From Paenibacillus sp. JZ16 (GTDB lineage Bacteria; Bacillota; Bacilli; Paenibacillales; Paenibacillaceae): a stretch of 64,000 nucleotides of DNA. The stretch is taken from positions 5,212,001 through 5,276,000 of the forward strand of contig NZ_CP017659.1 of the NCBI RefSeq assembly GCF_015326965.1. The letters are read 5' to 3'. This document shows positions 1,881 through 7,809 of this stretch, piece by piece. Position 1 is the first letter of the stretch. Every line of letters begins with the position of its first letter. Position numbers and translations under genes: made by a program. The notes beneath the pieces were generated by a model that ran no database searches, was not told where the DNA came from, and worked only from the letters and a program-made list of their open reading frames with translations.

Positions 1881-2645
1881 TCATCTGGTGAGCCGTATCG
1901 ATTCCGTGCTTTCTTCATGTTTCACATGCTTCTGTTTGCGATGCATCCAGCTTGCCAGCCATGTGCTGATCTCATACAGACCGATGAGCGGGATGGCAAC
2001 CATCAGGTGAGATACGAGATCAGGCGGTGAGATCAGCGCCGCAATGATCACCAGAACGACGTAGGCATACCGCCTCATCGTATGCAGGATAGCCGGGCTT
2101 AATATGCCTATTCGCGTCAGAAACAGGACAACAACGGGGAGCTCGAAGGCAAGGGAGAGCGGGATGATGATATTGAACATGAATCCGAAGTACTGGGCGA
2201 CGCCGTACGTTTCGACAAGGTCCATCTGACTGTTGATTCCTGTCGTAAAAGCAAGACTCATCGGAAAAACGACAAAGTACGCAAAGGCAACCCCTATAAG
2301 AAAACATAACGCGGAGAAAGGGATAAACCGAAGGGCCGCTCTCTGCTCGCGGTTGTTCAGTCCCTGATTGACGAACAGCCATATTTGATAAAGGGCAAAC
2401 GGCAGGGTAGGAAGCAGCGATAATACGATGCTTATGCTCATATAGATGCGCAGTCCGTCCCAAGGCGAGAACACGTTCCAGGTTACCTGAAAGGCCGGTG
2501 AGTGATGCTTTAACATGGATAACACATGGGGGGCGGCAATCAGGCCTGCCGCCATGCTCAGGATGAAGACGGCAGCTACCAGCAGGATCCGTTTTCTAAG
2601 TTCGGCGATGTGCTCAAGCAGCGTCATGGTACCCTTGAACTCCAT
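1881..2645 (-). CDS. tatC: Twin-arginine translocase subunit TatC
   Basis: Polytopic core of the Tat system, which recognises twin-arginine signal peptides and moves folded proteins across the membrane. It reads 254 residues from the chosen start, the usual TatC length. The N-terminal HIAELRKRI motif and the cytoplasmic-loop pattern ALYQIWLFVNQGL followed by NREQR match the family, and six hydrophobic segments follow. I chose the ATG at 2645 because AAAGGAG lies 11 nt upstream and TatC proteins start close to the AELR motif. An alternative ATG pair at 2672 would overlap the upstream MerR stop by 4 nt and has no visible ribosome site. It lies downstream of the MerR gene, and tatA plus a Tat-signal oxidase sit divergently next door, so this is probably a dedicated TatAC pair for that oxidase. 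Confidence 0.93.
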   Translation of the reverse strand: MEFKGTMTLLEHIAELRKRILLVAAVFILSMAAGLIAAPHVLSMLKHHSPAFQVTWNVFSPWDGLRIYMSISIVLSLLPTLPFALYQIWLFVNQGLNNREQRAALRFIPFSALCFLIGVAFAYFVVFPMSLAFTTGINSQMDLVETYGVAQYFGFMFNIIIPLSLAFELPVVVLFLTRIGILSPAILHTMRRYAYVVLVIIAALISPPDLVSHLMVAIPLIGLYEISTWLASWMHRKQKHVKHEESTESIRLTR

Positions 2646-2668
2646 AGGCTTCGTCACTCCTTTGGTCA

Positions 2669-2920
2669 TCATCGGAAGATGGGCGTGCAGCGCTGTTTTT
2701 TCGTTTTGTTCAATTCCTTCAGCTCAAATGTATTAAATCCCTCCTGCATTTTTTGATGGATTTCCTGGATGCTTTTCACATCCCCAAAAGAATATCGACG
2801 ATTTCCTCCCTTCGTACGCTCCGGAAATATAAGCTTTCGTTCCTCGTAATACCGAATTTGACGTTCCGTCAAGCCGGTCAGTTCGCAAACAACCCCAATA
2901 CTCATCACCTTACTCTCCAT
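2669..2920 (-). CDS. MerR-family regulator, TnrA/GlnR-like
   Basis: Eighty-three residues. The winged-helix part (about 5-72) contains GLTERQIRYYEERKLIFPER and RYSFGDV, closely resembling the DNA-binding half of Bacillus TnrA (SIGIVSELTGL, RQIRYYEERKLIYPQR, KYSFADV). TnrA and GlnR are the global nitrogen regulators of Bacilli, controlled by feedback-inhibited glutamine synthetase through their C-terminal tails. Here the tail is short, ending in TPIFR, where TnrA has about 110 residues. The AGGAGGT ribosome site lies 8 nt before the ATG. It precedes tatC on the same strand and is divergent from the oxidase, whose promoter carries a TnrA-type box, so it is the likely local controller. It could instead be one of several TnrA/GlnR copies in the genome. 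Confidence 0.82.
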   Translation of the reverse strand: MESKVMSIGVVCELTGLTERQIRYYEERKLIFPERTKGGNRRYSFGDVKSIQEIHQKMQEGFNTFELKELNKTKKQRCTPIFR

Positions 2921-3101
2921 AATCTTTACCTCCTATGTAAGTATTGTTAACCCTGAGCTATTGTTCCTGGCTTGGGATTAAAAACGAAGAAGATAAAACG
3001 GCAATAATTTTGGCGATTTCATTTTGTTTGGAAGGATTTATGACATGATTTTATGAAAAAGAAGGAAAAAAAGCAATCGTTTTTCAAAAATAAAAAAACC
3101 G

Positions 3102-3118
3102 TGTAAGAAAACCTAACA
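3102..3118. promoter_or_regulatory. TnrA/GlnR-type operator before the oxidase gene
   Basis: The 17-mer TGTAAGAAAACCTAACA fits the TnrA/GlnR consensus TGTNA-N7-TNACA at every fixed position. It lies in the divergent region between the MerR-type regulator and the oxidase. Its centre (3110) is about 50 bp before the start site predicted from the -10 at 3148-3153. TnrA-activated promoters in Bacillus have the box at about -50. Confidence 0.72.
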
Positions 3119-3144
3119 AAATTTAAGCCAAACTTTGTTTTCTC

Positions 3145-3153
3145 TGCTAAGAT
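3145..3153 (+). promoter_or_regulatory. Extended -10 promoter of the oxidase operon
   Basis: TG-C-TAAGAT is an extended -10 element. The 17-bp-upstream position (AAGCCA) shows no -35 likeness, as expected for an activator-dependent promoter. The start site would fall near 3160. Confidence 0.5.
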
Positions 3154-3197
3154 CGGCTCATGAATCCAATCACAAACTAGCGAAGGAGTGAACGAGG

Positions 3198-4802
3198 GTG
3201 GCTACAAAAGGACAACCAAAAGAGATGACCCGGAGGCAATTTCTGACGACTGTTGGCAAGGTGGGTGGATCTGTCGCCGTCTTCAGCTTGATGGGTACGA
3301 TGGGGCTCCTTACGCCGGAAACGTTGAAAGCAGCAGAATATATGCCTCCCGGAAAAAATGACCTGACTCTAAGCGGCCGCGGCGGCAAGAAGATTATTAT
3401 TCTCGGCGCAGGAATCGCGGGTTTGACGGCAGCGTATGAGCTTGGTCTGGCAGGTTACGATTGCACGATATTGGAAGCGAAAAGCTTTGCCGGCGGGCGC
3501 AATTGGACGATCCGCAAAGGAACCTCCGTTGCGGAGATCGGATTTGGCCGTCAGACTTCCCGCTTTGATAACGGGCTGCACTTCAATGCAGGCCCGATGC
3601 GGATTCCGCAGTTTCACGTCACGCTGGATTATTGCAAGAAGTTTGGCGTAGCCATCGAGCCATTCAACAATGTGAATGAGAGCGGCTACTACTATAACGA
3701 GAACGTGGGGGCTTTATCCGGGCAGCGCGTCCCCAAGCGTGCAGCCAAAGCCGACGTGCGCGGTTACGTGGCCGAGATGTTGGCCAAAGCCGTGAATCAA
3801 AATGCGCTGGATCTGCCGCTGACAGCGGAAGAGAAGCTGAAGCTGGTGGATTATCTGAGGGCCGAAGGCGATTTGAATCCGGATCTGTTCTACAAGGGAT
3901 CCGAGCGCGGCGGGTATAAGGATGAGCCGGGAAGCCGCCTGGATGCCGGTGTGCTCCGGGATCCATTCGATTTGAAGGCGATCATCAATTCCGGCTTCGG
4001 CAAATATTTCAGCAACGAGTACGGTTACGACCAGCAGATGATGATGTTTCATCCCGTAGGCGGCATGGATGCCATCATCAAGGCATTTGAGAAAAGAATC
4101 GGCAACCGGATCAAGTACCGGGCAGAGGTGAAGGAAATTCGCCAGTCCTCTTCCGGTGTGCGGATCGTGTACACGGACGGCAATTCCGCCAGAGAGCAAG
4201 AAATCCGCGGCGATTATTGCATCTGCACCATACCGTTGACGGTATTGAAGAAGATCCCGGCCGATTTCTCGCCGGAGATGTCCAAAGCGATCAGCAGCGT
4301 CGGTTACGCTTCCGCAGGTAAAATCGGCCTGCAGTTCAAACGGCGCTTTTGGGAAGAAGACGAATATTTATATGGCGGCAGCAGCTTGACGAATATGGAC
4401 ATTACGCAAATCTACTATCCGCCGACAGACTATTTTGGAAAGAAGGGGATTCTGCTTGGTTATTATGCATACGGGGGCACTGCCGATAAAATCGGGGCCA
4501 TGTCGTATGCCGAACGCGAGCGACTTGCACTAACGCAAGGCGCTAAGATTCATCCACAGTATCCGAAGGAGTTCGAGGCATCCTTCTCCATCGACTGGAA
4601 AAAGACTAAATACCAGGAAGGCGGCTGGGTATCCTATTCCGCCAACGACAGGAAAACCTACTACCCTACCCTCTGCAAGCCGGATAACCGTATTTACTTG
4701 GCAGGGGAGCACATCAGCTACATCACGGCTTGGCAAGCAGGGGCCATTGAGTCCGCCCGCGAGGTCGTAACCGACATCCATCAACGCGTAATGAAAGCGT
4801 AA
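3198..4802 (+). CDS. Tat-exported flavin amine oxidase, L-amino-acid-oxidase-like
   Basis: FAD enzyme of 534 residues predicted to oxidise amines or L-amino acids to imines with release of hydrogen peroxide. The N-terminus is a twin-arginine signal: TRRQFLT at 11-17, then a glycine-rich hydrophobic stretch to about 36. The dinucleotide-binding motif GAGIAG lies at 70-75, with the adenosine-binding ILEA about 20 residues later. GPMRIPQFH at 132-140 matches the snake-venom L-amino-acid oxidase segment GPMRLPEKH, whose arginine binds the substrate carboxylate, so an amino acid is the more likely substrate. The C-terminal YLAGEHISYITAWQAGA covers the flavin. The start is GTG with AAGGAG 9 nt upstream. 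It heads an operon with an exported RidA-like protein (19-bp gap) and tatA, under a TnrA-type box. Exact substrate is unknown. Confidence 0.88.
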   Translation: MATKGQPKEMTRRQFLTTVGKVGGSVAVFSLMGTMGLLTPETLKAAEYMPPGKNDLTLSGRGGKKIIILGAGIAGLTAAYELGLAGYDCTILEAKSFAGGRNWTIRKGTSVAEIGFGRQTSRFDNGLHFNAGPMRIPQFHVTLDYCKKFGVAIEPFNNVNESGYYYNENVGALSGQRVPKRAAKADVRGYVAEMLAKAVNQNALDLPLTAEEKLKLVDYLRAEGDLNPDLFYKGSERGGYKDEPGSRLDAGVLRDPFDLKAIINSGFGKYFSNEYGYDQQMMMFHPVGGMDAIIKAFEKRIGNRIKYRAEVKEIRQSSSGVRIVYTDGNSAREQEIRGDYCICTIPLTVLKKIPADFSPEMSKAISSVGYASAGKIGLQFKRRFWEEDEYLYGGSSLTNMDITQIYYPPTDYFGKKGILLGYYAYGGTADKIGAMSYAERERLALTQGAKIHPQYPKEFEASFSIDWKKTKYQEGGWVSYSANDRKTYYPTLCKPDNRIYLAGEHISYITAWQAGAIESAREVVTDIHQRVMKA

Positions 4803-4821
4803 ATCGAAAGGAGACAATTCC

Positions 4822-5376
4822 ATGAAAAATCAACTGAAGACGATCCTGGCGCTGGCCATGCTGATCAGTGCGGTGAGTGTAACCGCCGCGTATGCCGACA
4901 GCTCTTCCGCCTATAAGAAGCCGACCAAAGCTTCACCCGCCCCGAAATTTTACGGCAGTCCCACATCCTCTATTTCCAGCGGGGTTATCATACCCGAAGG
5001 GGCTTCCTATCTTTATACAAGCGGGACGGTTCCGCCCTTGCTGAACAAGGATGGCAAGACGGTTTATGAGCGCTATGGCGATACCAAAACCCAAGGAATC
5101 GGCATCCTGAAGGAGATCGAGAAACAGCTGAAGGAGCAGGGGCTGACGATGAAGGATGTCGTCTATTTGAGAGTATACTTAACCCCGGATGCAGCCAAGA
5201 ACGGAGCTTTTGATTATACCGGCTGGTTTGACGCATACGCCCAGTTTTTCAATACGAAGGAGAATCCCGTGAAGCCTGCGCGTTCTACCGTGGGAGTAGC
5301 GAGCCTCGTGAATGCCGATTGGTTAATTGAGATTGAAGCCGTAGCGGTATACCCTGGCAAGGATAAGAAAAAGTAA
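4822..5376 (+). CDS. Exported RidA/YjgF-like imine deaminase
   Basis: RidA-family proteins hydrolyse reactive enamines and imines to ketones and ammonia, normally in the cytosol. This 184-residue version has a clear Sec-type signal peptide: basic start, hydrophobic core at 8-20, AYA at 23-25 as the likely cleavage site. The RidA fold spans about 45-178. The substrate-binding arginine of the family is present in KPARSTVGV (R154), followed by the LIEIEAVA strand. GAAAGGAGA precedes the ATG. It lies 19 bp after the oxidase, so product and enzyme would meet outside the membrane: oxidase makes the imine, this protein releases ammonia. It is clearly longer than the 126-residue cytosolic paralogue at 7429. 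Family is firm; the coupled role is inference. Confidence 0.85.
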   Translation: MKNQLKTILALAMLISAVSVTAAYADSSSAYKKPTKASPAPKFYGSPTSSISSGVIIPEGASYLYTSGTVPPLLNKDGKTVYERYGDTKTQGIGILKEIEKQLKEQGLTMKDVVYLRVYLTPDAAKNGAFDYTGWFDAYAQFFNTKENPVKPARSTVGVASLVNADWLIEIEAVAVYPGKDKKK

Positions 5377-5466
5377 GTTGTTCTTGTTCCACGTAGTCGG
5401 CTGATCGAATAGCGCTGGCTTTTACAAATGAACGGTCACCATCACATATTAAAGGAGTTGGGTTCT

Positions 5467-5682
5467 ATGTTTCAAAATGTCGGCTTTGTCGGATTGATGA
5501 TGATCCTGATTGTCGTGCTCATTCTGTTCGGTCCTTCCAAGCTGCCGGAGCTTGGGCGGGCGGTGGGCCGCACGTTGTCTGAATTCAAAGCTTCCGCCAG
5601 AGACTTGGTTGGGGAAGATAAAGAAGAGGAAAAGGGCAAGGAGAGGGAAAGGGAGGGAGCGGTCATCAAACTGAAAGGGTGA
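5467..5682 (+). CDS. tatA: Sec-independent translocase protein TatA
   Basis: Pore-forming partner of TatC, 71 residues. One N-terminal membrane helix (about 5-21) ends in the family hinge LFGPSKLPELGRAVG, followed by an amphipathic helix and a highly charged Lys/Glu tail. I chose the ATG at 5467 because AAAGGAG ends 9 nt upstream; an in-frame ATG at 5428 would add 13 residues without a ribosome site. It is the third gene of the oxidase operon, with tatC on the opposite strand 2.8 kb away, so the oxidase appears to carry its own translocase. Confidence 0.92.
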   Translation: MFQNVGFVGLMMILIVVLILFGPSKLPELGRAVGRTLSEFKASARDLVGEDKEEEKGKEREREGAVIKLKG

Positions 5683-7428: not shown

Positions 7429-7809
7429 ATGAGTAAACATATCATATCGACCAACAAAGCACCGGGAGCTATCGGGCCTTACAGCCAAGCTGTAGAAATC
7501 AACGGATTCGTCTATACCTCAGGCCAGCTCGGCCTGAATCCGGAAACGGGTGAATTCGGCGAGGGAGTTCAGGAGCAGGCGAAGCTGTCTCTTAGCAACG
7601 TGAAGGCGATCCTTGAAGCAGCCGGGACAAGCCTCGACCATGTGGTGAAAACCACCGTATTCTTGAAGGATATGAATGATTTTGCAGCGGTTAACGAAGT
7701 GTACGGCAGCTTTTTCTCCGAGCCCTACCCTGCTCGCAGCGCCGTTGAGGTTGCTCGTTTGCCGAAGGACGGACTGGTTGAGATTGAAGTCATCGCCGTT
7801 AAGCCATAA
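7429..7809 (+). CDS. ridA: RidA family 2-iminobutanoate/2-iminopropanoate deaminase
   Basis: Canonical cytosolic RidA/YabJ, 126 residues, the standard length. It hydrolyses reactive imines formed by PLP enzymes such as threonine dehydratase, protecting metabolism. Family signatures are intact: GPYSQAV near 16-22, YTSGQLGL at 29-36, the substrate arginine in YPARSAVEVARLP (R103) and the final VEIEVIAVKP. AAAGGGTGA lies before the ATG. A strong terminator follows. It is a paralogue of the exported RidA-like protein at 4822 but has no signal peptide. Confidence 0.93.
   Translation: MSKHIISTNKAPGAIGPYSQAVEINGFVYTSGQLGLNPETGEFGEGVQEQAKLSLSNVKAILEAAGTSLDHVVKTTVFLKDMNDFAAVNEVYGSFFSEPYPARSAVEVARLPKDGLVEIEVIAVKP

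What the first reader, a model, noticed from the sequence alone, without database searches (positions are those of the whole stretch)
1881..5682. Self-contained Tat module: L-amino-acid oxidase, exported RidA, tatA, tatC and a TnrA-like regulator
Five adjacent genes make one plausible system. The oxidase has a twin-arginine signal and a GPMR carboxylate-binding motif. An exported RidA-like protein follows it, then tatA; tatC and a TnrA/GlnR-like MerR gene lie divergently. RidA proteins are known to speed hydrolysis of imino acids made by L-amino-acid oxidase. I infer extracytoplasmic deamination of amino acids to keto acids and ammonia under nitrogen limitation, with its own translocase. I know of Bacillus TatAC pairs dedicated to PhoD or YwbN, but not this arrangement.
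Basis: partly seen in the sequence, partly recalled or inferred. Interest (0 to 1): 0.88.

Follow-up and report, generated by a model that had tools for sequence, protein, structure and literature searches.

The report
Nitrogen-controlled amino-acid oxidase export module
Some soil bacteria related to Bacillus carry a conserved gene set that seems to export an enzyme pair for stripping nitrogen off amino acids outside the cell, together with export-machinery genes and a nitrogen-starvation switch.

Summary
Five intact genes lie at 1881-5682: tatC and a short TnrA-like regulator on the minus strand; a Tat-signal L-amino-acid oxidase, a Sec-signal Rid3-like protein and tatA on the plus strand. 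In the 80 relatives returned (of 535 found), rid is present in 80, tatA in 79 (the miss is a contig end) and tatC in 68 (54 divergent, 14 collinear). No other gene family reaches more than 19 of the 80 loci.

Three points go beyond the finding. (1) A perfect GlnR/TnrA box lies upstream of the oxidase in 68 of 80 loci (about 0.8 expected); in 59 of 67 promoters it has fixed spacing to an extended -10, an activator-like layout. (2) Local TatC is polyphyletic (AU p 5e-6): the oxidase-Rid-TatA core has used TatC of at least two lineages. (3) The regulator lacks a GlnR-length sensor tail.

Best reading: nitrogen-starvation deamination of extracellular amino acids. Oxidase-RidA pairs (Gluconacetobacter, Chlamydomonas) and substrate-linked TatAC pairs are known; the combination is a new variant. 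Dedicated TatAC specificity is not shown: 11 loci lack a nearby tatC.

The parts
1881..2672 (-). tatC, 263 aa
   Evidence: PF00902 184.1 bits over profile 1-208; one of four tatC in the genome
2669..2920 (-). short TnrA-like MerR-fold regulator, 83 aa, overlapping tatC by 4 bases
   Evidence: TnrA 4r22 81.3 bits, GlnR 4r4e 58.6 bits
3102..3118 (+). GlnR/TnrA box, perfect match to TGTNAN7TNACA
   Evidence: only match in the 64 kb window, 0.55 expected; conserved upstream of 68 of 80 relatives
3145..3153 (+). inferred extended -10, TGCTAAGAT
   Evidence: read; same spacing to the box in 59 of 67 promoters
3198..3335 (+). twin-arginine signal of the oxidase, residues 1-46 (end point estimated by eye)
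   Evidence: MTRRQFL; an RRxF[LM] motif was found in all 80 relatives
3198..4802 (+). FAD L-amino-acid oxidase, 534 aa, GTG start
   Evidence: 2jae 401.8 bits; R135 and Y423 invariant in 28 rows
4822..4896 (+). Sec-type signal peptide of Rid, residues 1-25 (cleavage site estimated by eye)
   Evidence: MKNQLKTILALAMLISAVSVTAAYA; no RR motif
4822..5376 (+). exported Rid3-like imine deaminase, 184 aa, catalytic Arg at residue 154
   Evidence: best PDB hits PFL1385 and PSPTO3006; Arg column
5467..5682 (+). tatA, 71 aa from the likely start
   Evidence: PF02416 68.6 bits
5733..5785 (+). terminator-like hairpin with U-run
   Evidence: -29.4 kcal/mol, z -7.31, 0 of 200 shuffles as good

Best explanation
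The module is a nitrogen-scavenging system that works outside the membrane. When nitrogen is short, a TnrA/GlnR-type regulator (the local TnrA-like protein, the genome's GlnR, or both) binds the box at 3102-3118 and switches on oxidase-rid-tatA. The oxidase folds around FAD in the cytoplasm and leaves by Tat; Rid leaves unfolded by Sec. Outside, the oxidase turns L-amino acids into 2-imino acids and H2O2. Rid hydrolyses the imines to 2-keto acids and ammonia, which the cell can take up. The local TatA and TatC are made with the cargo and supply the translocase that it needs. Shown by sequence: gene identity, conservation, box and promoter spacing, catalytic residues, signal types, TatC of two lineages. 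Inferred: enzyme activity, location, direction of regulation, use of the local TatAC.
For: Oxidase is of R. opacus LAAO type with R135 and Y423 kept. Rid is closest to Rid3 proteins that act on imines made by an L-amino acid oxidase and keeps the catalytic Arg. Gene set conserved. Box in 68 of 80 loci against 0.77 expected, 137-fold denser than elsewhere in the same loci and absent upstream of tatA in 43 of 43 non-local tat loci; extended -10 at fixed spacing in 59 of 67. A close physiological parallel, LAO1 with LAO2/RIDA of Chlamydomonas, is nitrogen-starvation induced (PMC10805672, passages). Two different TatC lineages sit beside the same core.
Against: No assay exists here. 12 of 80 loci lack a perfect box within 430 bp, 6 of them among the 14 collinear loci. 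11 of 80 loci lack a nearby tatC and are unlikely to depend on a dedicated one. The window's single box is within chance taken alone. The 80 loci are the relatives most similar to the query and are not independent samples.
Confidence: 0.7

Rival explanations
1. Same enzymes and nitrogen control, but the tat genes only raise general Tat capacity when much of one folded cargo must leave; this TatAC has no specific pairing with this oxidase.
For: 11 of 80 loci have no nearby tatC, and the 10 of those genomes that were searched keep 1-2 tatC elsewhere. In five of those genomes (G001, G002, G005-G007) a tatC of the MoaB/MoaC-linked clade was placed on the tree, the clade of the own L001.
Against: tatA stays beside rid in 79 of 80 loci, and TatC of two lineages was joined to the same core; simple capacity would not need linkage.
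Confidence: 0.4
2. The enzyme makes H2O2 or keto acids for competition, signalling or iron binding, or indole-3-pyruvate for plants; nitrogen gain is secondary.
For: LAAO genes are needed for indole-3-acetic acid formation in G. diazotrophicus (PMC5053998, abstract and passages) and in Chlamydomonas (PMC10805672). Antimicrobial H2O2 from other bacterial LAAOs is recalled.
Against: The conserved GlnR/TnrA box argues for nitrogen as the signal.
Confidence: 0.15
3. The flavoenzyme is a dehydrogenase that passes electrons to a membrane carrier rather than to O2.
For: In 7 of the 10 plasmid records viewed, relatives lie beside a cytochrome c gene.
Against: No further gene family recurs in the 80 Bacilli loci above 19 (ORFs of 130 aa or more only, so a small cytochrome could be missed); the closest solved homologue is named an oxidase.
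Confidence: 0.15

Closest known systems
lao-cccA-ridA cluster of Gluconacetobacter diazotrophicus (PMC5053998)
   Same: Tat-signal L-amino-acid oxidase of the R. opacus type in an operon with a RidA gene
   Different: has a cytochrome c gene and no tat genes in the described cluster; studied for auxin formation
Chlamydomonas periplasmic LAO1 with LAO2/RIDA (PMC10805672)
   Same: extracellular L-amino-acid oxidase plus a RidA-type partner, highly expressed in nitrogen starvation, releases ammonium
   Different: a eukaryote; no Tat genes, no GlnR/TnrA box
Rid genes clustered with FAD amine oxidases (PMC4433059)
   Same: RidA or Rid3 genes beside FAD amine oxidases; Rid proteins hydrolyse oxidase-made imines
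   Different: 'secreted', 'signal peptide' and 'periplasm' occur 0 times in the main text
B. subtilis phoD-tatAd-tatCd and ywbN-tatAy-tatCy (PMC3827258)
   Same: tat genes linked to one secreted cargo whose need depends on nutrient conditions
   Different: other cargo (phosphodiesterase, peroxidase); here the TatC lineage changes between species and tatC is often divergent

Membership tests
L-amino-acid oxidase (R. opacus type) | full-length homology to a solved LAAO | tested here: met
   2jae, 401.8 bits, residues 55-532
L-amino-acid oxidase (R. opacus type) | Arg and Tyr that bind the substrate carboxylate (roles recalled) | tested here: met
   R135 and Y423 align with them and are invariant in 28 rows
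L-amino-acid oxidase (R. opacus type) | oxidation of L-amino acids with H2O2 release | not testable with these tools
   needs an assay
Rid imine deaminase (Rid3-like) | conserved catalytic Arg | tested here: met
   79 of 79 readable rows, one row gapped
Rid imine deaminase (Rid3-like) | subfamily placement as Rid3 | tested here: inconclusive
   best PDB hits are two Rid3 proteins; no subfamily tree was made
Tat substrate | twin-arginine motif in the signal region | tested here: met
   MTRRQFL in the window; RRxF[LM] in 80 of 80 relatives
Substrate-dedicated TatAC pair | stable linkage of tatA and tatC to one cargo gene | tested here: inconclusive
   tatA 79 of 80, tatC 68 of 80
Substrate-dedicated TatAC pair | export of the cargo only by the linked pair | not testable with these tools
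   needs tat deletion strains
TnrA/GlnR regulator | winged helix of TnrA/GlnR type | tested here: met
   TnrA 81.3 bits, GlnR 58.6 bits
TnrA/GlnR regulator | C-terminal sensor tail of GlnR length; NCBIfam TnrA cut-off | tested here: not met
   median 29 residues after the wing in 67 of 68 local genes, 82 in the own GlnR; 108.6 bits against a cut-off of 140. So TnrA-like, not filed as TnrA

The most novel reading that the evidence does not exclude
The oxidase-Rid-TatA core acquired its TatC more than once from unrelated TatC branches, so Tat translocases in Bacilli are re-recruited by their cargo. A TnrA-like protein without the sensor tail gives the module a local nitrogen switch that need not sense glutamine synthetase directly, and the Paenibacillus type may pair a TatAd-like TatA with a TatCy-like TatC.
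Probability: 0.35. Interest if true: 0.75.

Novelty: new variant of a known kind. Interest (0 to 1): 0.62.

Why it matters
It would extend nitrogen-starvation amino-acid oxidation outside the cell, known from an alga, to Gram-positive soil bacteria, with export machinery and promoter logic in one locus. It offers a natural experiment in Tat specificity: the same cargo beside TatC of two lineages, or none nearby. It also suggests why some Paenibacillus genomes hold four tatC, and gives a test system for an extracellular Rid protein.

Tried and rejected
Hybrid TatA(d)/TatC(y) pair: local TatA is nearer to d-side TatA (54% against 45% mean identity), but an AU test does not reject grouping with the y side (p 0.79, the held tree even scoring higher); kept only as a possibility. 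One origin of all local TatC: rejected (p 4.7e-6); one origin of the 12 collinear TatC used: rejected (p 0.004). Extra module genes: no family recurs in more than 19 of 80 loci (ORFs of 130 aa or more). Wider Bacilli: of 398 sampled genomes 22 match at E 1e-30, but only the own one is an ortholog; the others are 29-33% identical and their alignments start at residue 60 or later. The first Arg count (34 of 80) came from a faulty pattern search and was replaced by an alignment. The promoter scan found no more promoter-like sites than shuffles and did not list the site proposed here, which has no -35; it also missed the hairpin.

Papers: no held paper joined L-amino acid oxidase, RidA and Tat signal (0 papers), or TnrA, GlnR and L-amino acid oxidase; RidA, tatA and amine oxidase gave 4 papers whose titles are on other subjects; twin-arginine, amino acid oxidase, Bacillus and TatC gave one Streptomyces paper, listing seen only. 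PMC3827258 lists yjgF/L-PSP and merR among Bacilli tatC neighbours in a legend and holds 'amine oxidase' 0 times. A search for a paper on the R. opacus residues gave none. Only open-licence PMC papers were searched. Every paper cited was seen as passages found by term (in some cases with the abstract), none in full.

Full report
OBSERVATION. The five genes are present and intact. tatC 1881-2672 and the TnrA-like gene 2669-2920 lie on the minus strand and overlap by four bases, so they are probably co-expressed. Oxidase 3198-4802, rid 4822-5376 and tatA (start most likely 5467) follow on the plus strand, and a strong hairpin with a U-run closes the unit. The genome (7.42 Mb, one contig) holds four tatC; the other three have a tatA next to them. 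It has one copy of this oxidase.

WHAT THE PROTEINS ARE. The oxidase matches R. opacus L-amino-acid oxidase over residues 55-532 with 401.8 bits. R135 and Y423 align with the Arg and Tyr that bind the substrate carboxylate (role recalled; one search found no held paper) and are invariant in an alignment of 28 rows. The Rid protein is nearest in the PDB to PFL1385 and PSPTO3006, which PMC5619798 lists as Rid3 and shows to lower trapping of imines made by an L-amino acid oxidase (passages). Its catalytic Arg is kept in 79 of 80 loci, the 80th being a gap. A hydrophobic N-terminus was scored in 69 of 80 with a start chosen by rule; 0 of 80 has RRx[FLVI]. So the oxidase looks Tat-exported and Rid Sec-exported.

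CONSERVATION. A scan of genome contigs found 535 relatives and returned the best 80. Counts by profile search: rid 80 of 80; tatA 79 (L037 is a contig end); tatC 54 divergent, 14 collinear behind tatA, 12 none (of which L072 is a contig end); regulator 68. Some genes are in pieces: tatC and rid in L006, rid in L011, oxidase and tatC in L085. No other family recurs in more than 19 loci. In 295 sampled genomes of the window's family 48 hold the oxidase. In 61 genomes of the own genus the oxidase, the exported Rid and a regulator of at least 76% identity occur in the same 7 genomes, while a GlnR-sized relative occurs in all 61. In one of the 7 (G696) the oxidase is in two pieces, and the rid match holds a stop in two others (G704, G268). 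The genes are adjacent and the species related, so this shows linkage and is not independent evidence.

NITROGEN CONTROL. TGTNAN7TNACA is the published GlnR/TnrA consensus (PMC3412718, PMC6191146, PMC9948412; passages). The window's only perfect match in 64 kb is 3102-3118, just upstream of the oxidase (one match alone is within chance, 0.55 expected). Across relatives, 68 of 80 loci have at least one perfect box within 430 bp upstream of the RR codon, against 0.77 expected from shuffles. Density is 93 per 34.4 kb there and 26 per 1316 kb elsewhere in the same loci, and 0 of 43 non-local tat loci have one upstream of tatA. In 59 of 67 promoters (66 loci with a box 60-200 bp upstream, plus the window; L085 left out) an extended -10 lies at a fixed distance, against 0.53 in shuffles. 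This puts the box centre about 50 bp before the inferred start. No -35 recurs: the commonest near-match to TTGACA (14 of 67) lies inside the box itself. This is an activator-like layout; that TnrA activates from about this distance is recalled. By layout: divergent 52 of 54, collinear 8 of 14, no tatC 8 of 12. By regulator: 60 of 68 with it, 8 of 12 without, so a global regulator may serve where the local one is absent. The two papers on GlnR control hold 'oxidase' 0 times in their main text.

THE REGULATOR. It scores higher to TnrA (81.3 bits) than to GlnR (58.6). Its tail after the wing is short: median 29 residues in 67 of 68 local genes, 82 in the own 136-aa GlnR-like protein. In PMC6191146 the C-terminal tail is where glutamine synthetase acts on GlnR (passages). 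The local protein may thus bind DNA without that direct signal (inference). In 24 of 68 loci a further box lies within 110 bp upstream of the regulator gene.

THE TatC SWAP. A tree was made of 78 TatC: 35 local (22 of 54 divergent loci plus the window, 12 of 14 collinear; 34 loci left out by hand as near copies or broken) and 43 non-local (three of the own genome, 40 from 21 of the 37 genomes). The divergent-local TatC form one clade (support 96) on the side of the own tatC that lies by MoaB/MoaC-type genes (L001). All collinear-local TatC lie on the side of the own tatC behind a PhoX-family gene (L002). PMC3827258 links TatCy with moaC/mogA and TatCd with phoD or DUF839 (passages), hence the names y and d. 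Holding all local TatC together is rejected (p 4.7e-6), and so is one collinear clade (p 0.004), two long rows having been dropped first. The oxidase tree (56 rows) gives a collinear clade (92) and a divergent clade that holds the tatC-less loci in several places. So one enzyme core has used TatC of at least two lineages. TatA is too short to resolve. Of the 11 loci without nearby tatC, 10 genomes could be searched (L022 was not held) and all 10 have 1-2 tatC elsewhere.

OUTSIDE BACILLOTA. Of 37 plasmid records with the oxidase family, 10 were viewed. Four have cytochrome c and RidA beside it (Microvirga, Comamonas, Sulfitobacter, Ketogulonicigenium). Three have cytochrome c and no listed RidA (Deinococcus, Rhizobium, Mesorhizobium). 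Sphingomonas has RidA behind one other gene. None of these eight lists a tat gene in the stretch, though the plasmid gene tables are incomplete. Nonomuraea is not annotated. A Metabacillus plasmid, from Bacillota, carries oxidase-rid-tatA-tatC.

READING. The best-supported mechanism is nitrogen-starvation-induced oxidative deamination of amino acids outside the membrane, with Rid completing imine hydrolysis, as with LAO1 of Chlamydomonas and its RIDA partner (PMC10805672, passages). Known pieces: LAAO-RidA clusters (PMC5053998, PMC4433059) and cargo-linked TatAC (PMC3827258). Not found in print: their union with GlnR/TnrA boxes. Whether the local TatAC is specific for the oxidase remains open.

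Noticed in passing
L175 2678-2992 and L176 2698-2982: Two congeners without the oxidase (G724, G717) hold another short TnrA-like gene next to an amidohydrolase (PF07969 in L175), with two perfect GlnR/TnrA boxes in each 6-kb stretch (0.07 expected): perhaps a second locally controlled nitrogen-scavenging unit.
   Followed up: partly
L002 36-2208: The own genome has a PhoX-family gene followed by its own tatA and tatC, another cargo-linked Tat pair.
   Followed up: partly
window 7429-7809: A canonical cytosolic RidA gene (TIGR00004, 184.8 bits) lies 1.7 kb downstream of tatA, without a signal peptide.
   Followed up: no
L080 10254-10728: Two tatA genes in tandem between rid and tatC.
   Followed up: no
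G696:C5:118657-120247: In one congener the oxidase is in two pieces while rid and the regulator remain; L085 also has split oxidase and tatC ORFs.
   Followed up: no
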